Source: Kiritimatiellia bacterium (GTDB lineage: Bacteria; Verrucomicrobiota; Kiritimatiellia; JAAZAB01). From it: a DNA stretch of 43,625 bases. Positions 15,198 to 38,531 of this stretch are shown here, in pieces. Positions within the stretch are counted from its first letter, which is position 1, and each line of letters begins with the position of its first letter. The notes under the pieces were generated by a model. The model searched no databases. It was given only the letters and a program-made list of their open reading frames with translations, and was not told the DNA's origin. Position numbers and translations under genes: made by a program. The stretch lies in the NCBI GenBank assembly GCA_028715905.1, contig JAQUQV010000003.1:74066-117690 (forward strand). Reading direction: 5' to 3'.

Positions 15198-16355
15198 ATG
15201 CAGAAGAAGAATGTAAAGGCGGTTGTGATGGCAGGGCCGGGTAAAATAGAGGTACGGGAATTTCCGGCGCCCCCCCTTGAAAAGGGGGCGCTGCTGGTGG
15301 AGATTCTGCTCTCCGGCGTTTGCGGCACGGACAAGCACGGGTACAAGGGCGAGGCGGTTCAGTACGCCGGAACGGAACGGGAGATCAACGGGCCGTATCC
15401 AGCCGTTCCAGGACACGAGAATGTGGGGCGCGTGGTAGAGATCACGCCGGAAGCGGCGCGGCAGATGGAATTTTCGGGGAAGGAACTGAAGGTTGGCGAC
15501 CGGGTCATCATAAGTCCCGATATTCTTTGCGGAGAGTGTTATTACTGCCGGAACGGATTCGGTTACACGTGGTGTTCCAATATCAGGAGTTACGGACATC
15601 TTCTCTCCTCCGAGGCGCCGCATTTGACCGGCGGCTGGAGCAAATACATGTATGTTTATCCGAAGAGCCACGTGTTCAAGATCGGGGACGACGTGTCGGA
15701 TGAAATGGCCGTTTTGGCCGAGCCCATGTGCGTTACTTACGGCCTGGACATTGCCAAGGGGCATTCCTCGCTCCCCAACGAGGGTTTCATGGCGGGAGAC
15801 ACGGTTGTGGTGCTTGGGGTCGGGCCGCTCGGAATGTGCCATGTGATGAAGGCGCGCATGCTTGGGGCCGGCAACGTCATCGCCACCGACATGTCCGATT
15901 ATCGTTTAAAAATGGCCCGGGAATTCGGGGCCGACCATGTCTTTAACGCCGGGTCTCAGAAACCGCAGGAAATCGGCGCGGTGGTAAAGGATATGACCGA
16001 TGGCCGCGGCGCCGACGTGGTAGTGACGTGCACCGGCATGCCGAAATCGCTGATCGAGGGAATTGAGATGCTGCGCAAAGGCGGCACACTGGTTGAGGTC
16101 GGCAGTTTTGTTGACAAGGGGGAGATTCCGATCAATCCCCACAAGCATCTGTGCTCTAAAAACATCCGTTTGATCGGGATGACGAACCTGGCGTACGTGG
16201 GGTATTTGCCGGAGTTGCGGATGATGAAGGCATGGTCGAAATATTTTAATTTCAACAAGCTGGTCACGCACAAATATGCCATGGAAGACGCCGAAAAAGC
16301 CCTGCTGAAATCCATGGAGCCGGATTCAATGAAAGTGGCGATCAAACCAGATTAA
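15198..16355 (+). CDS. Second zinc-dependent medium-chain dehydrogenase (polyol/inositol type)
   Basis: 385 residues in the sorbitol/threonine-dehydrogenase-like branch. The catalytic zinc site is GVCGTDKHG plus PGHENVG. The structural zinc lobe has four Cys in CGECYYC...WC, and the cofactor fold has LGVGPLG (about residue 205). A clear GGGAG lies 7 nt before the ATG. It follows iolM by 31 nt and precedes the IolI-like gene by 4 nt, so it belongs to the operon. It differs from iolM in sequence and probably acts on another ring polyol or a later sugar acid. It could supply the inositol 2-dehydrogenase step that the pathway needs, but this is not proven. The substrate is unassigned. Confidence 0.82.
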   Translation: MQKKNVKAVVMAGPGKIEVREFPAPPLEKGALLVEILLSGVCGTDKHGYKGEAVQYAGTEREINGPYPAVPGHENVGRVVEITPEAARQMEFSGKELKVGDRVIISPDILCGECYYCRNGFGYTWCSNIRSYGHLLSSEAPHLTGGWSKYMYVYPKSHVFKIGDDVSDEMAVLAEPMCVTYGLDIAKGHSSLPNEGFMAGDTVVVLGVGPLGMCHVMKARMLGAGNVIATDMSDYRLKMAREFGADHVFNAGSQKPQEIGAVVKDMTDGRGADVVVTCTGMPKSLIEGIEMLRKGGTLVEVGSFVDKGEIPINPHKHLCSKNIRLIGMTNLAYVGYLPELRMMKAWSKYFNFNKLVTHKYAMEDAEKALLKSMEPDSMKVAIKPD

Positions 16356-16359
16356 AAAC

Positions 16360-17199
16360 ATGTTGCCGGCAATCAACGGAGCGACGACGTTAAAATCATC
16401 CCTGGAAGCCGATATCGCGGCGGCCGGTCGGGTAGGGTTCGGCTGTCTGGAAATAACGCTTGCCAAGCTGGAGGAATATCTGCGGCATAATTCCGTCCGC
16501 GATCTTTTGATGTGTTTTGAGAAAAGCCGGGTCCGCCCCTTCTCAATCAACGCCTATGACGGCGGCACGCTTTTTGACAACCAGGCGGAGCGGGACACGG
16601 GCCGGCAGCGCTTTCGCGATATCTGCGCTCTGGCGAGAAGTATTGGCTGCCGTTACGTGGTGGCGATTCCTTCGTTTCTGGAGCGGGAAGGGACGGTCCC
16701 CGAAAAGGAAATCGTCCGGAAAACATCGGAGGTTTTGGAGGAATATTGCGCCATCGCGCTCGGATACGAAGTGCGCGTGGCCTTTGAATTTCTGGGGTTT
16801 CGCAAATGTTCGGTCAATAACATGCGGATGAGCGCGCAGGTTGTCAAGAAGGCTGCGGCGAAAAATCTCGGTCTGGTGCTGGATACATTTCATTTCTTTA
16901 TCAGCGGTTCCGACCCGTCCGCGCTTGAAAAGGAGTGTGTCGGTAAAATATCCATCGTGCACATCAATGATTGCGAGGATTTGCCGAAAAACACGTTGGA
17001 GGACAAACACAGATTGTTTCCGGGGGACGGCGTTATTCCGCTGGATAAAATTCTGGCGGCGCTGAAGGCCGGCGGATACGAAGGCGTTGTTTCCGTGGAA
17101 CTGTTCAGGCCGGAATACTGGGCCTGGCCGCCGGAGAAAACAATGCGCATGGCTTATGACAGGATGAGCGAAGTGTTAAAAAATGTTCGCTGGAAATAA
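16360..17199 (+). CDS. iolI: IolI-like inosose isomerase (xylose-isomerase-like TIM barrel)
   Basis: 279 residues. IolI interconverts 2-keto-myo-inositol and 1-keto-D-chiro-inositol. The protein follows Bacillus IolI along its length: INGATTLKSSLE at the start, RYVVAIPSF, AFEFLGFRKCSVN, LGLVLDTFHFF, HINDCEDLPK and SVELFRPEYW. The divalent-metal ligands are Glu143, Asp175, His201 and Glu247, each one residue from the positions I remember for the Bacillus enzyme (142, 174, 200, 246). The gene starts 4 nt after the second dehydrogenase and has no strong ribosome-binding site, so coupling is likely. The presence of IolI extends the pathway to D-chiro-inositol. Confidence 0.82.
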   Translation: MLPAINGATTLKSSLEADIAAAGRVGFGCLEITLAKLEEYLRHNSVRDLLMCFEKSRVRPFSINAYDGGTLFDNQAERDTGRQRFRDICALARSIGCRYVVAIPSFLEREGTVPEKEIVRKTSEVLEEYCAIALGYEVRVAFEFLGFRKCSVNNMRMSAQVVKKAAAKNLGLVLDTFHFFISGSDPSALEKECVGKISIVHINDCEDLPKNTLEDKHRLFPGDGVIPLDKILAALKAGGYEGVVSVELFRPEYWAWPPEKTMRMAYDRMSEVLKNVRWK

Positions 17200-17226
17200 C
17201 GATCGGTAATCATTAACGGCATTACA

Positions 17227-18045
17227 ATGAAGTTTGGACTGGTCTTGTCAACGAATACGACGCGGTTTTCAGCCGTCAGTTACAGCGGCGACCTCGCGCG
17301 CAGCATCGGCCGGGCGGCCGCGCTGGGATACGACGGTATTGAACTGGCCGTGCGCGACCCGGCTCTGGTTGACTCAAAACGGCTGAAAAAGATCATCAGT
17401 TCGGCCGGCATGGAAGTTCCCGCCATCGGCACCGGCCAGGCATTTCTGGAGGAAGGCTTAAGTTTAACCGACCCGCGGAAGGAAATCAGGAAAAAGGCCG
17501 TTGAGCGGATCAGGGCCCATGTTTGTTTCGCGGCTGAATTCAATGCGGCGGTAATCATCGGGCTGATCAGGGGCCGCGGCCGTGAAAACGGCGGCGAGGA
17601 GCGCGGGCTTTTTGAGGAATCCCTGGCCGTGTGCGCGGGATTTGCCGCGAGAAAAGGCGTGAAACTTTTTATTGAGCCCCTGAACCGTTACGAGACAAGG
17701 CTCATAAACACCATTGAAGAAGGCGGCGAGCTTGTCAGGAAGATCAAACATGACAACCTGAAGCTTTTGATAGACACGTTCCATATGAATATTGAGGAGC
17801 CTTCCATTTGCGGGAGCATTGTGAAGGCGAAACCTTTTCTCGGACATGTGCATTTTTCCGACAGCAACCGCCGCCCCCCGGGCTGCGGCCACCTGGGGTT
17901 TTTAGATGTCATGGATGTGCTCAAAGGCATTGGTTATAATAAATATATCTCAATGGAAATGATGCCGTGGCCCACGCCCGCCGAAGCGGCGCGGCAAAGT
18001 GTTGAATATATAAAAGGCATTTTAACGAAAGGAACAACGAAATGA
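17227..18045 (+). CDS. iolO: 5-keto-L-gluconate epimerase (IolO-like, TIM barrel)
   Basis: 272 residues, a sugar-epimerase TIM barrel. It follows what I remember of Thermotoga maritima IolO, which epimerises 5-keto-L-gluconate to D-tagaturonate: an LVLSTNTTRFSA start, GYDGIELAVRDPALVD, AIGTGQAFLEEGLSL, FIEPLNRYETRLINTI, LIDTFHMNIEE and HVHFSDSN. The metal ligands expected for the fold are Glu150, Asp183, His209 and Glu244, with His186 nearby. Its stop overlaps the start of the next gene (ATGA), so it is translated together with the IolN-like hydrolase whose product it would use. The assignment rests on motif identity and operon logic. Confidence 0.84.
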   Translation: MKFGLVLSTNTTRFSAVSYSGDLARSIGRAAALGYDGIELAVRDPALVDSKRLKKIISSAGMEVPAIGTGQAFLEEGLSLTDPRKEIRKKAVERIRAHVCFAAEFNAAVIIGLIRGRGRENGGEERGLFEESLAVCAGFAARKGVKLFIEPLNRYETRLINTIEEGGELVRKIKHDNLKLLIDTFHMNIEEPSICGSIVKAKPFLGHVHFSDSNRRPPGCGHLGFLDVMDVLKGIGYNKYISMEMMPWPTPAEAARQSVEYIKGILTKGTTK

Positions 18046-19211
18046 ATAAAAAACATGACAGGGGCGAGAAGATTGTAAAAGAACTGTTTGCGACGGCGGA
18101 AAAAGAATTCCGGCATGAAAAATGTCTCTCTCCCTACGAATACATAATGAACCACGGCTATGACAATCTCGGCGAAGATGACATCGAGGCCGTGGCCGCG
18201 TATTACGGTTATCCGCACCCGAACCGTTTGAACGATCCGAAATACTTTTTCTGCCACGCCCCCTTCGGCGACGTTTATCCGGAGATATTGAAGACGCGCA
18301 GCGTCATTTTTGTCACCGGCTCCATGGAACTGCACGGCGCCATGAGCAATCTGTTCCAGGACGGCCACCAGTGCCTGGCGATCGCCTATGCCATGCGTCA
18401 AAAAACCGGGATCATGCTGGCTTTCCCGACCGGCGCCGGCTCGCACCCCTCGCACCATTGTTACATGCCGGGAACCACGATCATCCCTGAAAAAACGCAC
18501 ATAAATACCATTTTCTGGAACATGGTCGGCCTTTACAATATGGGCTTCAGGAATATCATCAACCTGCAGAACCACGGACAGGAATACGTGAACCAGCACG
18601 CCATTCATAAGTTCGGCAAGACGACCGGCTGCCCGGCGATCATCATGGAGACGGAATGGTATACCTGGCAGATGAAGGGGTTTGACCCGAGGCGCAAATC
18701 CTGCAAATTGAAGTCGCCCTTCATCCATGCGGACGAGGCGGAAACTTCCTATCAGATGGCAACCGGCCCAATGGAAAGCGTCAACATGAAGTATGCCGTC
18801 AAAACCGAACCGGCGGGTTCGTTGAGGTATAGTCCAACCACCAAGGCCGGCGCGCTCACGCCGGGCATTTCGGTCTGGCACCAGTTTTATCCGCAGGGCA
18901 TGGAATGGAAAAAAACTCCGGCCGGCGTGGTCGGAGACCCGACCGGCGCTTCGCCGGAAAAAGCCGTGCGCCCCTTGTGCGTTTATTCCATGCAGTTGCA
19001 TTTCTACATCAGGGAATCCATGAAGGTGGTGCGGGACGATAAAAAATTCCTGAGCGACGATTTTTGCCTTGCGCCGATCGGCGAGGTGCGGGATTATGCC
19101 CTCATGCCGCCTTATGAATCCATGCTGAAGGAAAACAAAATCCCTTCAAACTCAAAATGGAAATCCATCTACCGTCATCCCTCCATCATGGCCATGATGG
19201 GTGTTGATTGA
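18042..19211 (+). CDS. iolN: 3-dehydro-scyllo-inosose hydrolase (creatininase superfamily)
   Basis: 389 residues of the creatininase fold. Metal-binding residues Glu96, His98 and Asp107 in VTGSMELHG...FQDGHQ have the same spacing (2 and 9) as the E-x-H-x8-D site of creatininase, and SHPSHH and NLQNHGQE supply further candidate ligands. In Thermotoga the equivalent enzyme (IolN) opens the diketo-inositol ring by hydrolysis, giving 5-keto-L-gluconate. Placement directly after iolO (4-nt overlap) and behind iolM fits that role. The long N-terminal extension of about 85 residues (CLSPYEYIMNHGYDNL, then YYGYPHP) goes beyond ordinary creatininases. A creatinine function is unlikely in this setting. 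Confidence 0.78.
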   Translation: MNKKHDRGEKIVKELFATAEKEFRHEKCLSPYEYIMNHGYDNLGEDDIEAVAAYYGYPHPNRLNDPKYFFCHAPFGDVYPEILKTRSVIFVTGSMELHGAMSNLFQDGHQCLAIAYAMRQKTGIMLAFPTGAGSHPSHHCYMPGTTIIPEKTHINTIFWNMVGLYNMGFRNIINLQNHGQEYVNQHAIHKFGKTTGCPAIIMETEWYTWQMKGFDPRRKSCKLKSPFIHADEAETSYQMATGPMESVNMKYAVKTEPAGSLRYSPTTKAGALTPGISVWHQFYPQGMEWKKTPAGVVGDPTGASPEKAVRPLCVYSMQLHFYIRESMKVVRDDKKFLSDDFCLAPIGEVRDYALMPPYESMLKENKIPSNSKWKSIYRHPSIMAMMGVD

Positions 19212-19258
19212 ACCAGATGATTATGGCAGAATATGATTCAATTCGCGGGAGGTCTTAA

Positions 19259-20488
19259 ATGCAGGAAATTGCAGGAAATACTATGAATAATTCAACGTTA
19301 AGCCGAAATCAGATAAGAATCGGTATAGTCGGTTTGACCGGCCGCGGCATAATCGCCAGGCATTTCCATAAACCGGCGGGGAAATCGGTCGTTACAGCCG
19401 GCATGGATACAAGCGACAAGGCCTTTGCCATTTTTAAGCGGGAAATAAACAAAGACGCGTATCTTACCAAAAATATTGACGACCTGCTCTCCAGGGATAT
19501 TGACGCGGTCGTCATAACCAGCCCTGATTTTACTCATGCGGAATACGCCATCAAGGCTTTGCAAGCCGGAAAACATGTCTATTGCGACAAGCCCATGGGC
19601 ATTACCATTGCGCAATGCGACGAAATGCTGGAGGCATGGCAAAAGTCCGGGAAACATTTCATGGTCGGATTCAACATGCGTTACATGAACATTTTCCGTG
19701 TAATGAAAGATATTGTGGATTCGGGGGACATCGGCGAAGTGAAGGCGGTCTGGGTAAGACATTTTGTCGGACCGGGCGGCAACTGGTATTATCATGACTG
19801 GCATGGCGCCAGGAAAAATTCCACCAGCTTGTTGCTGCAAAAAGCCTCGCATGATATTGACATGATTCATTGGATAACCGGCCAGTATACGAAACGTGTT
19901 TCGGCTATGGGCAGTCTGGATTATTACGGCGGGGACAAACCCAACGACTTGCGTTGTCCCGATTGTCCGGACAAGGATACCTGCGTTGAATACCAGCATA
20001 TCGGAGACAGTCTGCGCTCCAATCAAATGGATATGTGCGTGTTCAGGAAGGAAGTCGACGTGGAAGACAACAGCGCCGTCATGATGGAACTGGCGAACGG
20101 CATCAAAGCCACCTATCAGCAGTGTCATTACACGCCGGATTACTGGCGCAATTACGTGTTTATCGGCACCGAGGGGCGACTGGAAAACCTTGACGATAAT
20201 TGCCGGGTCGCGGTAAAATTGCGGCAGAGGTCCAAGCGCTGGAAAAATCTGGCGGCCGACCGTGTTTACAACATCAGGCAGGCGGAAGGCGGGCACGGCG
20301 GGGCCGATCCGATCATTTGCAATGATTTTCTGGAACTGCTTCTGACCGGTAAAAGGCCGGTTTCCACACCCCTGGCCGGCAGGATGAGCGTTGCGGTAGG
20401 CTGTAAGGCAACCGAGTCAATGCGCAACAAGAGCAGGGCGCTGGATATCCCCGAACTTCCGGCGAGTATTCGGGACAAAGTATATTAG
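19259..20488 (+). CDS. Gfo/Idh/MocA-family dehydrogenase with a Cys4 insert
   Basis: 409 residues. The N-terminal Rossmann fold opens IRIGIVGLTGRG and reaches the family's lysine motif CDKPMG (about residue 115). The C-terminal alpha/beta domain carries an unusual CPDCPDKDTC insertion (about residues 236-245) that could hold a structural metal. A GGGAGG ribosome-binding site 6 nt before the ATG at 19259 fixes the start. These enzymes use NAD(P) on sugars and inositols. As the only intact Gfo/Idh/MocA member in the iol cluster it is a candidate inositol 2-dehydrogenase (IolG role), although it is longer than typical IolG and could act on a different keto-sugar. The substrate is unassigned. Confidence 0.8.
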   Translation: MQEIAGNTMNNSTLSRNQIRIGIVGLTGRGIIARHFHKPAGKSVVTAGMDTSDKAFAIFKREINKDAYLTKNIDDLLSRDIDAVVITSPDFTHAEYAIKALQAGKHVYCDKPMGITIAQCDEMLEAWQKSGKHFMVGFNMRYMNIFRVMKDIVDSGDIGEVKAVWVRHFVGPGGNWYYHDWHGARKNSTSLLLQKASHDIDMIHWITGQYTKRVSAMGSLDYYGGDKPNDLRCPDCPDKDTCVEYQHIGDSLRSNQMDMCVFRKEVDVEDNSAVMMELANGIKATYQQCHYTPDYWRNYVFIGTEGRLENLDDNCRVAVKLRQRSKRWKNLAADRVYNIRQAEGGHGGADPIICNDFLELLLTGKRPVSTPLAGRMSVAVGCKATESMRNKSRALDIPELPASIRDKVY

Positions 20489-29181: not shown

Positions 29182-29313
29182 GAAAGCAGTTTGTAGGGAA
29201 AATTGCTGTAAAAAAATTCTCTGCAAATGATTGTAATCTTCAAAAAATCAGTTCAAAAATTCAGCAAGAATCGCTTAACTCATGTGAGGAAAACATATAT
29301 TCCGGGAGCATTC

Positions 29314-32300
29314 ATGAGACTCCGCCAAAATAAGATCATGAACCGTGTGATGCGGGCGTTCGTTGTAATGACGGGCGCCTTTTTTATTTTGGGGATGGGG
29401 GAAAAGGGCGGCGCGGAAGAGGGCGTTCCGGCCGGCATGGCTGAGTTGGGGGCGGAAACGGCGCTGGGTTCCGAACAATATCCGGACGAAAACTTCGGTT
29501 TGTTGGCGGGATGCGGCGGGCGGAGGGACCGCGATTATGACGGATTTACGGACGAGGAAGAGAGAAGAGTGGGGACAAATCCGCGGGATGCAAACAGCCG
29601 CCCGACGCTGGCTGACAATCATGACAAAATTTCAGCGTGGTGGCCGCTGGTTAATAATGCGGACGAGGCGCTGGAAGGGGAATTGAACGGGACATTGCTG
29701 AACGGCGCGAAATTCAAACAGGGAACACTGGAGCTGGATGGCCGCAGGGCATACGTGAACTTTGGTTCATCACCGGCTCTGAGTTTCTGGGGCGATTTTT
29801 CATATTGCCTGTGGCTCAGGCCGAAAGACGGTAAAAATTTTGAGCGGGTGCTGGGGAAGGTAAAAAGCCGGAGCGGAGAGAGCGAATATTGTCTTTTTAT
29901 CGGATATTTCGGGCGGATCTGGAGCGCGCTTTCCCCGGACGGCAGTCTTGACTGGGACAAGGCGCTTTGGACGGGAACGGTATTGCCGGTGGTCAAGAAG
30001 AACAAATGGCTGCACATTGGGGTGAGTTGGCGGCCGGATACGGACGGCGTGCTGATGTATGTCAATGGACAAAGGGCCTGGACATGGAGCATAGGTTTTA
30101 ACGGCTTGACCAACATTTTCCTGGGCGGCGCGGACTTGACCCTGGGCGCGTTTGACGTTCAAGGTGCCCAGGCGGAGGATGCGTTCAATGGTAATATTGC
30201 GGGGATGATTTTCTGTTGCGAAACGATGAGCGATCTGGAGATGAAGGAGATTTGCCTGCTGGGCCCGGGCGGCGACTTGATCGCATATGTCAACCGTGAC
30301 AGCGACGGCGACGGATTGATTGACTGGTGGGAGCGTAAATATTTTTCCGATATAAGGCAGAACGGTCTGACCGATTCGGATGGCGACGGATTGAGCAACG
30401 CGCAGGAACAGCAGTTGGGAACAAATCCCGCTCTGGCGGACACAGACGGCGACGGGTATTCGGACGGGGAGGAAATTGCGGCCGGGAGCGATCCGCTGGA
30501 TCCAAAATCAACACCGGCGCCGAAAAAAGTTGCCTTACAAGTTAATTCAGTTCATGGAAGTTGTATGCCTTCAGTCGGAACGCATGAATACTCGTGCGGC
30601 AGCACGGTAGTCTGCTATATAGCAGAATCTCCCTTAATTCAGGGCAACACGCAATATGTTTCCACTGGCTGGATCGGCGCAGGCAGTATCCCGGTTTCAG
30701 GAACAAATCTTGAAGTTACGGCAATTCTACAGACAAATTCGGCGATCAATTGGCTCTGGACAACCAATTATTGGCTGGGGTTGAATGCGTTTGAGCACGG
30801 ACAAGTTGCCGGAACTTCAGGCTGGTATCGCGCGGGTATGGTCGTGAACGTCGGGGCCATGGCGGATGAATACTGGCGGTTTGCGGGATGGAGCGGAGAC
30901 GCGTCCGGCTTGGATACCAATGCAAACCCGCTTTCAGTTTTGATGGATCGCGGCCGTAATCTGCGGGCGAATTTTGAGACAACCCTGCCGCCTGATCCCG
31001 CCGACGCGGCTCCGGCCATACGAAAAGGCGAAGCAGGAATTCTCGGGAGAAATATTTCATTCCTTTATTCGGGTGAAAATCCAATTCAGACCGGAGCTGA
31101 TACGAACGCTTTTGAGGTTAAACGTTTGGCAGTGGTGCGCGGTAAAATTCTTGACCGGGAAGGTCAGCCGTTACCCGGTGTAACCGTGACGATCAGCGAT
31201 CATCCGGAATACGGTCAGACCCTGAGCCGGGCTGACGGCTGGTATGATCTGGCAGTGAACGGCGGAGCGGCCGTGGCGGTTGATTACCGGAAGAACGGAT
31301 ATCTGCCGGCGCGGCGGACGATTGACACCGCCTGGCAGGAATTTTCAATTTTGCCTGAAGTGCGGTTGATTTCATTCGATCCTGTTGCAACGCCGGTTCA
31401 GTTCGGGGCCGGCGCGACCAATGCGCAGGCGGCGCGGGCGAGCGCGGTGATGGATCAGGATGGAACGCGTCAAGCCACCGTGGTTGTTCCTTCCGGGGTA
31501 CAGGCGTATCTGGTGGATGATGCGGGAGTAACGCAGGCGGTGAACCAATTGACAATGCGTTTTACCGAATACACGGTCGGATCAAACGGTCCGGCCTGCA
31601 TGCCGGCGGAACTGCCTTCCAGCTCGTTCTACACTTATTGCGTGGAACTGGCCGCTGACGAGGCGGAAGGGAAGGCGGTAAAATTTGACCGGCCGGTCAG
31701 TTTTTATGTGGATAATTTTATGGGTATGCCGGTGGGATTGAACGTTCCGGCGGCATATTACGAGTGGAAAGGATGCCCGGGCTGGATGGCTGAGCCGGAC
31801 GGCGTGGTTCTGCAAATATTGGCAGTCAATGAGCTTGGTTTGGCAGAGATTGATCTTAACGGCGACGGCCTGGCTGAAGACGAGGCCGGGTTGGAAGAAT
31901 GGGGAATTGCGCCGGAAGAACGATCGGAGTTGGCGAAATTATATGCGCCGGGAAAAAGTTTGTGGCGGGTGCAGGTTGCCAGGTTCAGCCCGCATGACTT
32001 GAATTATCCCTTTTATGTCGTGCCGGAAGGAGCGGAACGTCCGGTGGTAAAAGTCAGTGAAAAGAGCAAAAAAGTTGCGGGCGAATCGCGACAGAACACG
32101 GGCGGGACGATCGGGATAGAAAGCGGTTCATTCAGCGAGATATTGCCGGTCAGCGGAACGGGGTATGCGCTGAATTACACAAGCGCCCGCGCTTCGGGAT
32201 ATAATCGTTTTCTGACTATTCCCGCAGCGGGGGCTGATATTCCCGGCCTGATAAAACGGGTGGATATTGAAGTGAACGTGGCCGGGCGGCAATTTGTAAA

Positions 32301-35300
32301 TAGTTTTCCCGCGCAGACCGGTCAGGAGTGGAATTTTGAGTGGGACGGGAAGGACGCCTATGGACGCGATTTGACCGGCAAGCAAAAAGCCGCCGTAAAG
32401 ACGGGATATGTCTATGACGGATATTATGGTTTGACAGACCGGCAGAACGGCGGCAGAACATTCGGGACAATGAGCGGCGTTAATATTCCCGGCGGGATCA
32501 GGGGGCGCGCGGAAGTGGCGATGAGAACAGAGGCGGAAGTAAAACTGGGCGGGGCGGACGGTCGTCAATGGGGGTTGGGCGGATGGATGCTGGGGATTCA
32601 TCACGCGTATGATCCCGTAAGTCAAATTATTTCTTATGGGGATGGCCGGGAAAGTGGCGAGGGAACCCATGCGGTTCTGCGTTGTATAAGAACAGTCGCC
32701 GGACCCGGCATTGCCGGTTATTTTGGCGACGGCGGCCCGGCAATGGATGCCGCGTTGAATTGTCCGAGGGATGTATGTGCTGGTCCGGATGGAGCGTTTT
32801 ACATTGCCGATGCCGGCAACAACCGGATTCGGAAAATAAGTCCGGAAGGAATAATCACAACCGTGGCCGGGAGCGGAACGGCGGGATATTCCGGCGATGA
32901 AGGCTTGGCAATCAACGCGGAATTGAATAATCCGGCGAGTGTGGCTGTTTGCCGGCATGGCGTAATCTATATTTCCGACAATGGAAACAACGTTATCCGT
33001 AAAATTACGCCGGACGGAATCATTCACACCATAGCCGGAACCGGCATTGCGGGATATTCCGGTGACGGCGGCCCGGCAATATCGGCGCAGTTGAATGCGC
33101 CGCTGGGAATTGCGGTTGACAGGGAATGCGCCATATATATTGCCGACAGCGGTAATTACCGGATGCGCCGGATTGGACCCAATAAACGGATTAATACGAT
33201 TGCCGGCACAGGTGAGGAATTGGAATATTGGGAAGAAGCCACAGGCGATGGCGGGCCTGCGATTGAGGCGACGTTTAGAACTCCGATGGACGCGGCCGTG
33301 GCTGATGATGGAACTGTTTTTGTTGCCGATCTTTATGACAGCCGGATACGGCGGATCGGCAACGACGGAATTATTACCACAGTCTATCAGGCAAGCGATC
33401 CCGGTTTTGGTTGCCGTGCGGTAGCCGCAAAACCGGATAGTTCCTCGTTTTACGTGGTTGAATATATGACCGGCATGTTGGTGTGTCCGGCCATGGTCTG
33501 GGAAGTTTCGCCGGATGGAACGGCTAAACGTGTGGCGGGGATTTATGACTGGTCAGCGCCGCTGGGTGACGGCGGTCCGGCAACCGCGGCATATATAGAC
33601 GATGCGGAAGGCGCATGTTTCGGGCCGGATGGCGTCCTATATATCGCCGATACCCAACAACACCGCATTCGTTCCGTGAAGGTTGATTATCCCGGCTTCA
33701 GTAATGAAGAAATTGTCATTGCCTCGGAGGATGGAACCGAAATATACGTGTTTGACGCGGTTGGCCGCCATCTGCGGACATTAGATGCCGCTACCCGTTC
33801 TACGCTCTACGCCTTTTCTTATACCTCTGACGGTTTGCTGGACAAAATCACGGATGGCGGCGGATTGATTACCACGATTGAACGCGATTCATCCAACAAT
33901 CCGACTGCCATTGTTGGCCCATACGGCCACCGGACGGAAATGAAGCTTGATTCCAACGGCTGGCTGACTGAACTGACCAATCCGGCCGGGGAAAAGAATC
34001 TGATGAGTTATACCACCAACGGACTCTTGACCAATGTGGTCAGCCGTCGGGGCTATGAATTTCATCAGGAGTATGACGCGGAAGGAAAAATAGTCGGCAA
34101 CACCGATCCGGCAGGCGGGAGGCATTGCCTCTTTCACGAGGAATTAACCAACGGATGGGTTGTGGCGATCGCGGACAGCTTGGGCTGGACAAATACCCAT
34201 ATCGTTGAACGGTTCTCTGACGGAACGGAAATAAGAAGAATCATTGATCCGGTCGGGCTTGAGGTAACAAAAACAGAAACGTCGGAAGGTAATGTTACCA
34301 TCAACCACCCGGACGGCACCCAGATAACAATGCAACAGGGGCCTGACCCTCGTTTCGGCATGCAGTCGCCGATTGTCAAGCATAGGGAAATATCAACGCC
34401 CTCGCATTTTAACGTGACGGATTTTGAACGCATTGCCGGCTTGTCCGGTCCCTATGATCCCTTGAGTATGACGAATATGATTGAATATCTGACCGTGAAC
34501 GACCGGACATGGATGAGTCAATACACGGTTGCAGATAAAACTACAATCAATGTTACGCCCATGGGCAAACAAAGTGTGGTGCGGACTGACGCGCTGGGGC
34601 GTCTGGTGTATCTGCAGTCCCCCGGCATATGTGCAGTGAACAATGAATATGACGCGCAAGGCAGATTGGTTAAGACCATTCAGGGTGATGGTTCCGATGT
34701 TCGCGCTGTCAACTTTACTTATGCCGCCGACGGCACCTTGCGTTCCGTGAATAATGCTCTGGGCGAGCAGGTTTTGACGTTTTCCGACAAGATCGGCCGC
34801 CTGACCAATCAGGTATTTACTGACGGCAATGCGCTTAATCTCTCTTATGATCGCTCTTCCGATCCGATAAAATATCTCCTGCCTCATGGGAAGGAACATG
34901 GTTTCGGATATAATCCGGTCGGTCTTACTGAACGTTATAGCACCCCCGCTGTTGATTCCGAGCCGACAAATACGTCCTGGCATTACAATTCCGCACGGCA
35001 GATGGATTATTTGATCAAACCGGATGGCACGATTATCTCCAATGTATATGACAATGCCGGAAGATTGATTACCATGAAGGCCATGAAGGAAGGCGGAAGC
35101 GAAGAGATTTCATACGCGTATGATGAAGCTGGAAGAATTGGCTCGGTTACTCGCGCAGGCGATGCAATCCAATATTCCTACGATGCCTTCCTGCAAACCG
35201 GTGAAACGACGCCGACTGGAACAATCTTGCGGGAATATAACGATGACTTCCAAGTCGCGGTTTTGTCATTGGCCGGTGTCATGGGCGTCTCTTATGCCTA

Positions 35301-36747
35301 TGACGATGACGGACTTCTGACCCAAGCCGGGGATCTTTCATTAACCCGTGATTCCGCCTCCGGCTTCCTGACCGGGACGACGCTGGGGAATATCACTGAC
35401 CAGCGAACCTATAACGGCTTTGGCGAGGTTGCAAATTACACGGTAAATGTTTCCGGTAATCCGGTTTATTCGGTTTCCTACGAATACGATGCCCTTGGAC
35501 GGATCATTAATCAGTCAGAAACGATTGACAGCAGCACGATAAACAAATCTTACGTTTATGACACGCGCGGACGGTTAACGCAAGTAACGACGAACGGCGT
35601 AGTCAGCGAGTTCTATTCCTACGATGCCAATGGCAATCGCATCAGTTCGGATGTAGGAGCCGTTCCCCGAACGGCGATCGTTGATAATCAGGATCGTCTG
35701 CTTTCCTATGGCGATCTGTTCTTCGGTTATTCCATGAATGGCGAACAAACCAATCGCGCGGTCAACGGCCAAACAACGTCGCTTGCTTATGATCTCTTCG
35801 GCCAGCTGTCATCGGTCGCATTACCTGATGGACGGATAATCAGCTATGACAAAGACGCCCTTGGCCGGATTACTGCTAAACGTGTCAACGGCACAATTAT
35901 TAAAGGCTGGATTTACAAGGATGGCTTAAAGCCCATGGCCGAGACCGATGCCTCCGGAAATATTATAAGCGTCTTTATCTACGGTTCCAGTCCGCTCACG
36001 CCTGACTACATGGTTAAAAATGGCAATACTTACCGTCTCATTCGCGATCATGTCGGCAGTATTCGCCTGGTTATTGATGTGGTCACTGGCGCTATTGTCC
36101 AACGCCTCGATTATGATTCCTTCGGCAACGTTTTACAAGATACGAATTCTGGCTTCCAACCCTTTGGATTCCAATCCGGACTCTGCGATTCTGATACCGG
36201 CTTTGTCCAGTTCGGCGCGCGTTGGTATGACCCACTCACTGGCCGGTGGTTAAGCAAGGATTCCCTATTGTTGGCTGCGGGATGGAACGTGTATGCGTTT
36301 GTCGGAAATAATCCGATAAATCTCATTGATCCGTGGGGCCTTTGTGAAGACATGTCGCAATGGCAATTATATCAACCATGGATTGATGGGATACATGAGT
36401 CATGGTTCGGACCTGAAAGCGGTATCAACTCCATTGATGAATACGCTGCATTCTATTTCTTTGGCCAAGCTGGTGTCCCGAAGGATCTTTCGATCGCTTT
36501 CTATCAAGCGGCCTATGGTGCATTCTTTGTGGGAAGTCATACTGCGATGCTTATGGGCAGCTCAGTAATGGTCTACGGAGGAATTGAGACTGGGGTTAAC
36601 ATTTGGGCAAATACCTCAACTTTTGCAAAGTGGACGATATTAAATGCAACAATCCGTCTTACCACAGGTGCTGGGGGTAAACTGCAGGAACCGATACGAT
36701 TGCCAGCACCACCTCCACCAGGGATCGAGCGTCTATGGCCATTCTAA
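29314..36747 (+). CDS. Giant secreted Rhs/YD-repeat protein with NHL repeats and a variable C-terminal tip
   Basis: About 2,477 residues; GGGAG 5 nt before the ATG at 29314 supports this start over an upstream in-frame ATG at 29227. A signal-like hydrophobic segment follows MNRVMRAF. Order by base position: Ca-type repeat (29524-29600), LamG/concanavalin-like domain (29640-30290), thrombospondin-3-type DSDGDG repeats (30292-30510), an InlB-like repeat (30540-30990), a carboxypeptidase-regulatory-like domain (31120-31350), teneurin-like NHL repeats with IAGTGIAGYSGDGGPA (32690-33680), then YD repeats to about 36080. The Rhs core follows with RDHVGSIR, ARWYDPLTGRWLSKD and NPINLIDPWGL (ending about 36342), then a 134-residue tip. 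Rhs shells wrap and deliver toxic C-terminal tips. Secretion by signal peptide rather than PAAR/T6SS is inferred. Confidence 0.9.
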   Translation: MRLRQNKIMNRVMRAFVVMTGAFFILGMGEKGGAEEGVPAGMAELGAETALGSEQYPDENFGLLAGCGGRRDRDYDGFTDEEERRVGTNPRDANSRPTLADNHDKISAWWPLVNNADEALEGELNGTLLNGAKFKQGTLELDGRRAYVNFGSSPALSFWGDFSYCLWLRPKDGKNFERVLGKVKSRSGESEYCLFIGYFGRIWSALSPDGSLDWDKALWTGTVLPVVKKNKWLHIGVSWRPDTDGVLMYVNGQRAWTWSIGFNGLTNIFLGGADLTLGAFDVQGAQAEDAFNGNIAGMIFCCETMSDLEMKEICLLGPGGDLIAYVNRDSDGDGLIDWWERKYFSDIRQNGLTDSDGDGLSNAQEQQLGTNPALADTDGDGYSDGEEIAAGSDPLDPKSTPAPKKVALQVNSVHGSCMPSVGTHEYSCGSTVVCYIAESPLIQGNTQYVSTGWIGAGSIPVSGTNLEVTAILQTNSAINWLWTTNYWLGLNAFEHGQVAGTSGWYRAGMVVNVGAMADEYWRFAGWSGDASGLDTNANPLSVLMDRGRNLRANFETTLPPDPADAAPAIRKGEAGILGRNISFLYSGENPIQTGADTNAFEVKRLAVVRGKILDREGQPLPGVTVTISDHPEYGQTLSRADGWYDLAVNGGAAVAVDYRKNGYLPARRTIDTAWQEFSILPEVRLISFDPVATPVQFGAGATNAQAARASAVMDQDGTRQATVVVPSGVQAYLVDDAGVTQAVNQLTMRFTEYTVGSNGPACMPAELPSSSFYTYCVELAADEAEGKAVKFDRPVSFYVDNFMGMPVGLNVPAAYYEWKGCPGWMAEPDGVVLQILAVNELGLAEIDLNGDGLAEDEAGLEEWGIAPEERSELAKLYAPGKSLWRVQVARFSPHDLNYPFYVVPEGAERPVVKVSEKSKKVAGESRQNTGGTIGIESGSFSEILPVSGTGYALNYTSARASGYNRFLTIPAAGADIPGLIKRVDIEVNVAGRQFVNSFPAQTGQEWNFEWDGKDAYGRDLTGKQKAAVKTGYVYDGYYGLTDRQNGGRTFGTMSGVNIPGGIRGRAEVAMRTEAEVKLGGADGRQWGLGGWMLGIHHAYDPVSQIISYGDGRESGEGTHAVLRCIRTVAGPGIAGYFGDGGPAMDAALNCPRDVCAGPDGAFYIADAGNNRIRKISPEGIITTVAGSGTAGYSGDEGLAINAELNNPASVAVCRHGVIYISDNGNNVIRKITPDGIIHTIAGTGIAGYSGDGGPAISAQLNAPLGIAVDRECAIYIADSGNYRMRRIGPNKRINTIAGTGEELEYWEEATGDGGPAIEATFRTPMDAAVADDGTVFVADLYDSRIRRIGNDGIITTVYQASDPGFGCRAVAAKPDSSSFYVVEYMTGMLVCPAMVWEVSPDGTAKRVAGIYDWSAPLGDGGPATAAYIDDAEGACFGPDGVLYIADTQQHRIRSVKVDYPGFSNEEIVIASEDGTEIYVFDAVGRHLRTLDAATRSTLYAFSYTSDGLLDKITDGGGLITTIERDSSNNPTAIVGPYGHRTEMKLDSNGWLTELTNPAGEKNLMSYTTNGLLTNVVSRRGYEFHQEYDAEGKIVGNTDPAGGRHCLFHEELTNGWVVAIADSLGWTNTHIVERFSDGTEIRRIIDPVGLEVTKTETSEGNVTINHPDGTQITMQQGPDPRFGMQSPIVKHREISTPSHFNVTDFERIAGLSGPYDPLSMTNMIEYLTVNDRTWMSQYTVADKTTINVTPMGKQSVVRTDALGRLVYLQSPGICAVNNEYDAQGRLVKTIQGDGSDVRAVNFTYAADGTLRSVNNALGEQVLTFSDKIGRLTNQVFTDGNALNLSYDRSSDPIKYLLPHGKEHGFGYNPVGLTERYSTPAVDSEPTNTSWHYNSARQMDYLIKPDGTIISNVYDNAGRLITMKAMKEGGSEEISYAYDEAGRIGSVTRAGDAIQYSYDAFLQTGETTPTGTILREYNDDFQVAVLSLAGVMGVSYAYDDDGLLTQAGDLSLTRDSASGFLTGTTLGNITDQRTYNGFGEVANYTVNVSGNPVYSVSYEYDALGRIINQSETIDSSTINKSYVYDTRGRLTQVTTNGVVSEFYSYDANGNRISSDVGAVPRTAIVDNQDRLLSYGDLFFGYSMNGEQTNRAVNGQTTSLAYDLFGQLSSVALPDGRIISYDKDALGRITAKRVNGTIIKGWIYKDGLKPMAETDASGNIISVFIYGSSPLTPDYMVKNGNTYRLIRDHVGSIRLVIDVVTGAIVQRLDYDSFGNVLQDTNSGFQPFGFQSGLCDSDTGFVQFGARWYDPLTGRWLSKDSLLLAAGWNVYAFVGNNPINLIDPWGLCEDMSQWQLYQPWIDGIHESWFGPESGINSIDEYAAFYFFGQAGVPKDLSIAFYQAAYGAFFVGSHTAMLMGSSVMVYGGIETGVNIWANTSTFAKWTILNATIRLTTGAGGKLQEPIRLPAPPPPGIERLWPF
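36343..36747 (+). other. Variable C-terminal tip of the Rhs protein (candidate toxin domain)
   Basis: The 134 residues after the conserved DPWGL match no toxin family I recognise. They begin with CEDMSQWQLYQPW and an acidic, aromatic segment. A central hydrophobic stretch follows (AFYQAAYGAFFVGSHTAMLM, then VMVYGGIETGV, about tip residues 52-85), and the end is a proline-rich PAPPPPGIERLWPF. The hydrophobic centre would suit a membrane-active or pore-forming tip. The region is visibly richer in A and T than the rhs shell, as expected for an exchangeable cassette. The toxin role is inferred from position alone. Confidence 0.55.
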
Positions 36748-36748
36748 A

Positions 36749-37135
36749 ATGAATATTTCACACATAGTTCTTTTTACCTTGATATTTCTGGGAGTTCTTT
36801 TTATCCTCCGTTGGATTTTTTATGCTTTCCATGCTCGTGATTACTTGCGCTATATCAATAAAAATCCAGATAAGGCATACGATTTCTTTACTTCCGATCC
36901 TGAAATGTGGACTGTTTTTGAAATCGCCGAACCAGAGTTAATACGAGATCATCTGCCCAGTTCGGCAGGTCTACCACAAGGAAAGTTATTAGGTCCATTT
37001 CAATTTAGAGTCCCGAAACGTCATAATCGTATCGTTACTGTTTACGGAAAATCAAGAAAATGTCTTGATGCCTTAGATCAGCTCGTAAAAAACGGTAAAA
37101 ATGGGGCAGGGCTGATGACTTGGTTTCTGCGGTGA
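36749..37135 (+). CDS. Small membrane-anchored protein, putative immunity to the Rhs tip
   Basis: 128 residues starting 1 nt after the rhs stop; a longer in-frame reading from 36644 lies inside rhs and is rejected. Residues of about 5-25 are one strongly hydrophobic helix (HIVLFTLIFLGVLFILRWIF), followed by a soluble domain of about 100 residues with KAYDFFTSDPEMWTVFEIAE and a basic RVPKRHNRIVTVYGK segment. No family is recognised. Position, size, tight coupling and AT-rich composition are those of an immunity gene paired with the upstream tip. A membrane anchor would fit a toxin that attacks the inner membrane or arrives in the periplasm. This role is inference. Confidence 0.6.
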   Translation: MNISHIVLFTLIFLGVLFILRWIFYAFHARDYLRYINKNPDKAYDFFTSDPEMWTVFEIAEPELIRDHLPSSAGLPQGKLLGPFQFRVPKRHNRIVTVYGKSRKCLDALDQLVKNGKNGAGLMTWFLR

Positions 37136-37148
37136 AAGATGGTGCATA

Positions 37149-37556
37149 ATGTTTAAGCGATCTACAATCCTAATTGTTCTTCTAATGGCAGTGATGACGG
37201 CGCTCGGAAACGTCATTGATTCTGATCTTGTTAAAAATATTCCGGCTACTGAATGGTTCGATTCCGAGCCGACAAATACAGCTTGGCATTACAATTCCGC
37301 CCGACAGATGGATTATCTGGCGGGTCAAGCCTGATGGGACGATCATTTCCAACGTGTATGACTTTGCCGGATGTTTGATTGCCGTTCGTGCGGAAAAGGA
37401 CGGAATGACTGATGAAATCAGTTATACGTATGACAGTGCAGGGCGGTTGGAAACAGTAAATCGCGGTGGCAACGCGATTCAATATTCCTACGACGCCTTC
37501 CTGCAAACCGGAGAAACGACACCGACTGGAACAATCACGCGAGAATTATCAATCAT
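37149..37556 (+). pseudogene. Frameshifted fragment of a second rhs/YD gene, with a short signal-like leader
   Basis: From about 37257 to 37546 the DNA matches bases about 34955-35235 of the intact rhs gene: SEPTNT-WHYNSARQMDYL, then KPDGTIISNVYD and IQYSYDAFLQTGETTPTGT. Near 37318 four extra bases replace the codons of the intact copy and shift the frame, giving an immediate TGA, so it cannot make an Rhs protein. Divergence in the middle shows it comes from a different rhs gene, not a fresh duplication. Before it, an ATG at 37149 opens a hydrophobic leader (MFKRSTILIVLLMAVMTALG) of unknown origin that runs into the fragment. Such broken pieces are typical next to rhs genes after recombination. 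Confidence 0.72.
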
Positions 37557-38531
37557 ATAGAGGCTTACGTCGGCATCAAGGATGTTGAATTAAATGCGGC
37601 CTGTGACAAGCGCAAGGAGCGGTTGGACGACTATGGAAGAAAGTATCGGATCCCGCGCCTTTACGAGGACCTGGAAACAATGTTGGATAGCGAAAAGCCC
37701 GATCTTTTGCATATTGTTACCCCGCCTGCCATCCGCGAGGAACCGATGGAACTGGCGGCGCGGTGCGGAGTGAAGGGTATTATCGTGGAAAAACCGATCG
37801 CGCTCAATCCGGCCCAGGCTGGCCGGATCAAGGCCCTGGCCGACCGGACCGGCATGAAGATTGCCGTGAACATGCAGAGGCGCTACTTTAAAACCTGCCG
37901 GGACTTGAAAAAAATACTGGATGAAGGAACCATCGGGGACCTTCAATGGATTCGTTGCGTTACCAAGGGGAATATTCTTTCCATGGGGCCCCATCTGGTT
38001 GATCTTCTCCTGTTTTTTATGAATAATGTCAGTCCCCTCCGCGTATGGGCCATGGCCGTTGGAATGAACGGATATGACTACGGTCACCCGGCGCCTGCCA
38101 ACATGCTGGTGCAATACGTTTTTCCGGGCGAAAAGGTCGTTTATTTTGAGGACGCCGAGGACGCCGTCGGCACGTCGGACGAAAAGGATTTCTGGCAGCA
38201 TCTTGAGTTTGATTTCTGGGGGACGAAAGGCTGCGCCTGGTGGGCGCAGAACCGTGATTGGGGCTATCACGCCGAAGGCATGCGACAAACTTTTACTGAG
38301 AAATGCTCCTGGGCGGAAAGCGATGTGCCGGGGCAGAGGGAATTCACCCGTGCCATGGCCGCCTGGCTGGATGACGGCGAAAAATTGCACTTGAACTGCC
38401 TGGAGAACACCCTGAAAGGGTTCAACCTGATTATGGCAACGCTTCAGGCGGCATATACCGGCAAACGGGTGGAATTGCCGTGCGCGGTTCCGGATGATAT
38501 CGTGAACAGACTGGAGGCGAAACTTAAATGA
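37551..38531 (+). CDS. Gfo/Idh/MocA dehydrogenase lacking its NAD-binding N-terminus (probable pseudogene)
   Basis: The open frame reads HIEAYVGIKDVELNAACD directly after the rhs fragment, where an intact relative would first have 20 or so residues with the GxGxxG dinucleotide motif. That motif is missing; the only start-like codon in this part is a TTG at 37623. The rest is complete: VTPPAIREEP, the lysine motif VEKPIAL, the substrate domain with MGPHLVDLLLFF, and a normal C-terminus. The stop overlaps the next gene's ATG (ATGA, 38528), so the pair was once a coupled operon. The rhs fragment and the dehydrogenase are in different frames, so no fusion protein forms. Without the Rossmann motif the product should be inactive. 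Confidence 0.75.
   Translation, partial: NHIEAYVGIKDVELNAACDKRKERLDDYGRKYRIPRLYEDLETMLDSEKPDLLHIVTPPAIREEPMELAARCGVKGIIVEKPIALNPAQAGRIKALADRTGMKIAVNMQRRYFKTCRDLKKILDEGTIGDLQWIRCVTKGNILSMGPHLVDLLLFFMNNVSPLRVWAMAVGMNGYDYGHPAPANMLVQYVFPGEKVVYFEDAEDAVGTSDEKDFWQHLEFDFWGTKGCAWWAQNRDWGYHAEGMRQTFTEKCSWAESDVPGQREFTRAMAAWLDDGEKLHLNCLENTLKGFNLIMATLQAAYTGKRVELPCAVPDDIVNRLEAKLK

What the first reader, a model, noticed from the sequence alone, without database searches (positions are those of the whole stretch)
36343..37135. Candidate new toxin tip and membrane-anchored immunity protein
A 134-residue tip with a hydrophobic core and proline-rich end follows the conserved DPWGL boundary, and a 128-residue protein with one N-terminal membrane helix starts 1 nt after the stop. 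Neither matches a family I know. The membrane features on both sides suggest a membrane-targeting toxin. This is the strongest candidate in the window for an undescribed system.
Basis: partly seen in the sequence, partly recalled or inferred. Interest (0 to 1): 0.65.

Follow-up and report, generated by a model that had tools for sequence, protein, structure and literature searches.

The report
Orphan tip of bacterial teneurin-like toxin
A giant exported bacterial shell protein, related to the ancestors of animal teneurins, ends in a small foreign-looking tip that is probably an antibacterial toxin, and the next gene probably makes its membrane-anchored antidote; both sequences look new, but this kind of system is already known.

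Summary
Window 29227-36747 encodes a 2506-aa Rhs/YD protein. Its Rhs core ends exactly at DPWGL. A 134-aa tip follows (36343-36747), then a 128-aa ORF after 1 nt (36749-37135) with one strong N-terminal membrane helix. The carrier has all four Pfam teneurin domains above cut-off (TTR, FN-plug, NHL, YD-shell), an apparent signal sequence and the autoprotease residues (R2332, D2345, D2368), so it is a bacterial teneurin-like polymorphic toxin (TLP). That class is published, with ~15-kDa variable C-termini and downstream immunity genes. Neither small protein matches Pfam, NCBIfam, PADLOC, PHROGs or PDB. The only relative found, in hundreds of same-phylum genomes, is the tip's last ~50 residues, in a decayed tip beside an Rhs remnant. 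Synonymous codon usage breaks at the boundary: tip and partner score below all 56 host segments, so they look like one acquired cassette. "Membrane features on both sides" is only half right. The tip has no predicted transmembrane helix and is ordinary among 55 tips of its class. Membrane-anchored partners are common behind these tips (35/53 against 21% of controls). Best reading: new sequence members of a known kind, a toxin tip plus immunity protein. Membrane targeting is a plausible guess.

The parts
29227..36747 (+). 2506-aa teneurin-like Rhs/YD protein (toxin carrier plus tip)
   Evidence: ORF; PF25023, PF25021, PF25020 and PF24329 all above Pfam gathering scores; only Rhs core in the genome
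29314..29418 (+). apparent Sec signal region (MRLRQNKIMNRVMRAFVVMTGAFFILGMGEKGGAE), no lipobox
   Evidence: read from the translation; not run through a signal-peptide predictor
31111..31365 (+). TTR (teneurin transthyretin-like) domain, residues 629-713
   Evidence: PF25020, 88.4 bits, cut-off 27
32233..32424 (+). FN-plug domain, residues 1003-1066
   Evidence: PF24329, 32.8 bits, cut-off 27.8; confirmed in the genome search
32731..33390 (+). NHL repeats (teneurin NHL), about residues 1169-1388 and beyond
   Evidence: PF25021 106.3 bits (cut-off 27.1) and PF01436 74.8 bits
35395..36342 (+). end of the YD-shell with Rhs_assc_core, residues 2057-2372
   Evidence: PF25023 116.2 bits; TIGR03696 residues 2296-2372
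36220..36342 (+). autoprotease motif: R2332, D2345, D2368 and the DPWGL cleavage boundary
   Evidence: positions; spacing R-13-D-23-D against R2103-13-D2116-24-D2140 in BiTLP (PMC13018210)
36343..36747 (+). 134-aa C-terminal tip, candidate toxin; net charge -5; proline-rich tail
   Evidence: foreign synonymous codon usage z = -4.4
36595..36747 (+). tail of the tip (residues 85-134) shared with a decayed tip in another family of the class
   Evidence: G067:C333, 43% identity, E = 2.1e-5 in one genome
36749..37135 (+). 128-aa candidate immunity protein; membrane helix 6-24; net charge +6; predicted N-out/C-in
   Evidence: foreign synonymous codon usage z = -3.3
37149..37334 (+). short ORF: signal-peptide-like start fused to an Rhs-core fragment, then a stop
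37260..37546 (+). frameshifted remnant of a second Rhs core (74% identical to window 34954-35236)
37560..38531 (+). Gfo/Idh/MocA oxidoreductase frame that lacks its N-terminus and abuts the Rhs remnant
   Evidence: PF01408 matched from position 44 only; frame read

Best explanation
The locus is one polymorphic-toxin unit of the teneurin-like (TLP) kind. The 2506-aa carrier is exported by Sec (inferred) and folds into an FN-plug/NHL/YD shell (shown by domain profiles). It should cut itself after DPWGL (the three residues needed are present; cleavage not shown), which frees the 134-aa tip inside the shell. The tip is a toxin against related bacteria (inferred). The 128-aa protein made from the next start codon is its cognate immunity protein (inferred), held in the inner membrane by one helix with its 100-residue basic domain on the cytoplasmic side (inferred from charge and hydropathy). 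The mechanism I commit to: the freed acidic tip inserts its small-residue-rich and aromatic middle segment (about residues 47-90) into the inner membrane, probably as an oligomer, and makes it leaky; the partner, already in that membrane, binds and blocks it. Toxin plus immunity: about 0.7. Membrane attack as the mode, given that it is a toxin: about 0.45.
For: All four teneurin domains above gathering score, in teneurin order. Rhs core complete to DPWGL. R2332/D2345/D2368 at near-BiTLP spacing. Partner 1 nt downstream. Tip and partner share a synonymous codon usage that lies below all 56 host segments and all 18 Rhs segments (tip z -4.4, partner z -3.3); an amino-acid-inclusive codon score gives the same break; GC falls from 0.51 in the core to 0.47 and 0.39. 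A relative of the tip's tail sits beside Rhs debris in another family. Published TLPs have ~15-kDa polymorphic C-termini, several of them toxic when tested, with an immunity gene downstream of almost all; the Bacillus TLP C-terminus is hydrophobic and makes E. coli cells permeable when it is sent to the periplasm (PMC13018210). Tse5 is an Rhs tip that forms pores and has a membrane-integral immunity protein (PMC9637101). No catalytic family or enzyme signature is seen in the tip.
Against: The tip has no predicted transmembrane helix and ranks 25 of 55 in hydropathy. Its structure could not be predicted (pLDDT 39.6). There is no co-occurring homologous pair anywhere. The one relative of the tip's tail is followed by a different partner family, related to that of locus L121, not by a homologue of the 128-aa protein. 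A same-family TLP (G003) has a hydrophobic tip but no small partner directly behind it. The locus carries debris (Rhs fragment, truncated Gfo/Idh), so decay is possible.
Confidence: 0.62

Rival explanations
1. The tip is an enzyme of an unrecognised fold (for example a lipid, peptidoglycan or nucleotide-acting enzyme), and the partner is a membrane-tethered inhibitor. The mild hydrophobic stretch is then just the helical core of a globular domain.
For: The tip's hydropathy is below the usual transmembrane threshold. Other tips at this position in the class include a Tle1-like phospholipase catalytic domain (4.2e-39) and a DUF6765 match (3.4e-6), with exported-looking partners. Published TLP tips are mostly predicted enzymes.
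Against: No profile or PDB hit. No conserved polar motif can be defined, because there is no full-length relative; the one partial relative conserves Gly, Pro and Arg in the tail rather than a catalytic-looking set.
Confidence: 0.27
2. The tip is a worn-down or inert C-terminus, left by rearrangement in an Rhs locus, and the 128-aa ORF is an orphan immunity gene or an unrelated acquired gene.
For: Rhs-core remnant with a frameshift and a truncated Gfo/Idh gene directly downstream. No intact homologue of the tip in the genomes searched. The related tail in G067 lies in a broken tip. Foreign codon usage also extends to the debris ORF 37149-37331.
Against: The 2506-codon carrier frame and the partner frame are both intact, the gap is 1 nt, and the tip length (134 aa) is typical of the class (most about 60-175 aa) and of published TLP tips (~15 kDa).
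Confidence: 0.2
3. The carrier works mainly as a surface adhesin or signalling protein, as metazoan teneurins do, and its C-terminus is not a toxin.
For: N-terminal TSP3 and InlB-like repeats suggest surface display. Roles in cell-to-cell communication are left open for bacterial TLPs in PMC13018210.
Against: The autoprotease residues are kept, whereas mammalian teneurins lack the motif. Tip and partner look like an exchanged foreign cassette, which fits a polymorphic toxin better than an adhesin.
Confidence: 0.08

Closest known systems
Bacterial teneurin-like proteins (TLPs), e.g. BiTLP of Bacillus inaquosorum (PMC13018210)
   Same: TTR, FN-plug, NHL and YD-shell in the same order; Sec-type N-terminus; R/D/D autoprotease and DPxGL boundary; short polymorphic C-terminus; small gene directly downstream. 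BiTLP's tip is hydrophobic and acts on membranes.
   Different: No sequence match to a described tip was found with the tools here; BiTLP's tip has a predicted transmembrane region and this one does not; the disulfide Cys pair of BiTLP (FN-plug to tip) is not evident (no Cys in residues 1003-1066). The survey in that paper lists six phyla, none of them the one inferred here.
Tse5/Tsi5 of Pseudomonas aeruginosa (Rhs pore-forming tip and membrane immunity protein; PMC9637101, PMC10684867)
   Same: Rhs tip of similar length after DPxGL with no enzyme signature; immunity protein in the inner membrane
   Different: Tse5 is a T6SS effector with a PAAR-like N-terminus; Tsi5 has two membrane helices, this partner one plus a soluble domain; no sequence similarity detected (no PDB hit)
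EsxX with ExiAB/ExiCD (T7SS membrane-depolarising toxin; PMC12744356)
   Same: A toxin with small-residue packing that depolarises membranes, with immunity tied to one side of the membrane
   Different: Other secretion system and carrier; two immunity pairs; in this tip GxxxG occurs only outside the most hydrophobic stretch, which has small-xxx-small runs at 52-72

Membership tests
Bacterial teneurin-like proteins (TLP) | FN-plug, NHL and YD-shell superfold domains in one protein | tested here: met
   PF24329 32.8/27.8, PF25021 106.3/27.1, PF25023 116.2/50 bits
Bacterial teneurin-like proteins (TLP) | TTR domain upstream of the FN-plug | tested here: met
   PF25020 88.4/27 bits, residues 629-713
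Bacterial teneurin-like proteins (TLP) | TIP domain between TTR and FN-plug (96% of published TLPs) | not tested
   A 290-residue stretch lies there, but no TIP profile was on hand
Bacterial teneurin-like proteins (TLP) | Autoprotease residues (Arg and two Asp) and DPxG boundary | tested here: met
   R2332, D2345, D2368, spacing 13 and 23; BiTLP 13 and 24; cleavage itself not tested
Bacterial teneurin-like proteins (TLP) | Short polymorphic C-terminal domain with a gene immediately downstream | tested here: met
   134-aa tip, 128-aa ORF after 1 nt
Polymorphic toxin/immunity pair | Tip is toxic and the downstream protein specifically neutralises it | not testable with these tools
   Needs expression assays
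Polymorphic toxin/immunity pair | Tip and immunity gene travel together as a cassette | tested here: inconclusive
   Both share foreign codon usage, but no second copy of the pair exists; the tail's relative has another partner
Pore-forming Rhs tip (Tse5-like) | Predicted transmembrane helices in the tip | tested here: not met
   Best KD 1.25, dG about +5
Any named toxin or immunity family in Pfam, NCBIfam, PADLOC or PHROGs | Profile match above cut-off | tested here: not met
   None for either protein

The most novel reading that the evidence does not exclude
The tip founds a new family of membrane-active TLP toxins, and the 128-aa protein is a new single-helix immunity protein that acts from the cytoplasmic face of the inner membrane, in a bacterial phylum where teneurin-like toxins have not been reported.
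Probability: 0.28. Interest if true: 0.5.

Novelty: new member of a known kind. Interest (0 to 1): 0.36.

Why it matters
It adds an orphan tip/partner pair to a recently recognised toxin class that links bacterial warfare to animal teneurins, probably in a phylum outside the published survey. The class-wide comparison made here suggests that Rhs tips in this lineage are usually small and acidic and are followed by basic, membrane-anchored partners, which is a testable rule about where these toxins act.

Tried and rejected
Homologue searches that gave nothing: genome contigs with the partner and with the two-row tip alignment; viral contigs; plasmids; phages. Hits examined and rejected as chance: L017 (motility locus), L038 (inside a polysaccharide-deacetylase-like ORF), L040 (GatB), and the other weak tip hits, which lie in unrelated ORFs. 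AlphaFold models of both proteins were too poor for a fold search (pLDDT 39.6 and 54.5), so none was run. The tip's hydrophobic stretch as a transmembrane helix: rejected on hydropathy. The partner as a relative of the L121/L010 partner family because of similar C-termini (GLMTWFLR and GLWLWYG): rejected, -2.8 bits. A direct relation between the partner and L144's small membrane protein (E 0.03 in a tiny set): only the membrane helix aligns by eye, not accepted.

Full report
OBSERVATION. The ORF 29227-36747 (+) encodes 2506 aa. TIGR03696 covers residues 2296-2372 over all 76 model positions and ends on the L of DPWGL. The tip runs from C2373 (nt 36343) to the stop at 36745-36747, 134 aa. ATG 36749 follows after one base and opens a 128-codon frame to 37135. 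A frame of that length would stay open by chance with p about 3e-4. The partner has one strong N-terminal membrane helix (AlphaFold helix 3-38 confident at its start). The tip's hydrophobic stretch peaks at only 1.25 on the Kyte-Doolittle scale.

CARRIER. The large protein is not a generic Rhs protein. Pfam finds the four domains of teneurins in teneurin order, all above gathering score: TTR, FN-plug, NHL, YD-shell. TSP3 and InlB-like repeats precede them, and a hydrophobic signal-like region stands near the N-terminus (read by eye). A 2026 paper (PMC13018210) defines bacterial teneurin-like proteins by the FN-plug/NHL/YD-shell superfold. It shows self-cleavage at a DPxG motif with one Arg and two Asp, a polymorphic C-terminus of about 15 kDa inside the shell, toxicity of several C-termini, and an immunity gene directly downstream of almost all. 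In the window protein the Arg and the two Asp are R2332, D2345 and D2368, spaced 13 and 23, against 13 and 24 in BiTLP (residue numbers). The first DPxG is DSLL here; a Leu in place of that Gly is described in the paper. So the carrier passes the membership test for TLPs on every feature that could be tested; the TIP domain was not tested. TLPs are rare in this class too: FN-plug above cut-off in 1 of 134 genomes, E <= 0.001 in 5.

TAXON. From memory, two genomes in the class match the sizes of the two Pontiella type genomes (8.7 and 7.4 Mb; rows G160 and G153), which would make the class Kiritimatiellia (Verrucomicrobiota/PVC). This is inference only. That phylum is not among the six listed in the TLP survey.

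NO KNOWN FAMILY. Neither small protein matches NCBIfam, Pfam, PADLOC, PHROGs or a PDB sequence. Both occur once in the genome. Genome searches covered 193 relatives, 388 genomes across the phylum and, for the tip, 346 of the class; scans covered two genome contigs passes, viral contigs, plasmids and phages. They gave one believable relative: G067:C333, 43% identical to the last ~50 residues of the tip and ending at a stop close to the same place. Upstream of that tail the frame is broken, and an Rhs-core fragment lies close by. The small protein that follows it belongs to the family of the partner in L121, not to that of the 128-aa protein (78 bits against -2.8 bits). So the tail can occur with another partner, which suggests that the tail is not what the 128-aa protein recognises, or that the pairing was swapped.

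CASSETTE. Synonymous codon usage, scored against other genes of the window, breaks at the boundary. The tip scores -0.229 and the partner -0.149; all 56 host segments lie above (mean 0.096, sd 0.075, minimum -0.079), and so do all 18 Rhs segments (minimum -0.006). A score that includes amino-acid use agrees (0.5 and 1.6 against a host minimum of 3.1 and an Rhs minimum of 2.9). GC drops from 0.51 to 0.47 and 0.39. This is the best single piece of evidence that tip and partner arrived together. A caution: the debris ORF behind them (37149-37331) is equally foreign (-0.146).

CLASS-WIDE COMPARISON. Rhs cores with a match occur in 139 of 193 relatives. I fetched about 120 core-end regions with their downstream DNA and took the tips with a motif rule. 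Of these, 55 were complete and no longer than 200 aa. In hydropathy the window's tip ranks 25th. Of 53 partners within -40 to +110 nt and no longer than 260 aa, 35 have an N-terminal hydrophobic segment, against 25 of 121 small ORFs behind other long ORFs of the same loci (Fisher p = 1.4e-8). Tips are mostly acidic (median charge -4) and partners basic (median +4.5); the window pair is -5 and +6. So a membrane-anchored partner is the habit of the class and not by itself a sign of a membrane-acting tip. Two tips there carry recognisable domains: a Tle1-like phospholipase catalytic domain (4.2e-39) and DUF6765 (3.4e-6); the partner behind the phospholipase tip looks like a lipoprotein. By charge, most partners are N-in/C-out, whereas the window's partner comes out N-out/C-in. 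Limits: the partner picker takes the first frame of at least 70 codons, and the loci are those that scored best for the Rhs core, so they are not a random sample.

MECHANISM. Shown: domain architecture, boundary, intact frames, adjacency, codon break. Inferred: export, self-cleavage, toxicity, immunity, topology, membrane attack. I favour membrane attack because the tip has no enzyme signature, has an aromatic and small-residue-rich middle segment, and sits in a setting where BiTLP (PMC13018210) and Tse5 (PMC9637101) act on membranes. Against it stands the lack of a predicted transmembrane helix. An enzyme of an unrecognised fold is a close second. A worn-out tip is third: an Rhs-core remnant (37260-37546, 74% identical to 34954-35236, frameshifted) and a Gfo/Idh gene without its N-terminus lie directly downstream, and a same-family TLP in G003 has no small partner behind its tip.

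VERDICT. An orphan tip and partner of a known kind of toxin. The sequences are new, the system is not. The most novel reading left open is a new membrane-active tip family with a cytoplasm-facing single-helix immunity protein, in a phylum new for TLPs.

Noticed in passing
37260-37546: Frameshifted remnant of a second Rhs core (74% identical to 34954-35236) downstream of the partner gene, fused upstream to a signal-peptide-like start (37149); mark of past rearrangement.
   Followed up: yes
37560-38531: Gfo/Idh/MocA oxidoreductase lacks its N-terminal Rossmann start and abuts the Rhs remnant, as if the Rhs unit had landed in or deleted into this gene.
   Followed up: partly
L010 1236-1571 and L121 downstream ORF: A partner family ending in GLWLWYG/GLWLSFG occurs behind unrelated Rhs tips in two families of the class; not in Pfam.
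   Followed up: partly
class-wide loci L045-L193: Small acidic Rhs tips followed by basic, N-terminally membrane-anchored or lipoprotein-like partners are the common pattern in this class (35/53 against 25/121 controls).
   Followed up: partly
L046, L116, L140 tips: Three tips share a motif like 'F..(I/M)HDaxv....G.Pd....N.P.M....', possibly a common tip family.
   Followed up: no
L048, L064, L145 tips: Glycine-rich beta-like tips that may correspond to the 'outer membrane protein' type C-termini described for published TLPs.
   Followed up: no
15198-20488: Genes resembling inositol-catabolism enzymes (IolM-, IolN- and IolG-like NCBIfam matches, below the equivalog cut-offs).
   Followed up: no
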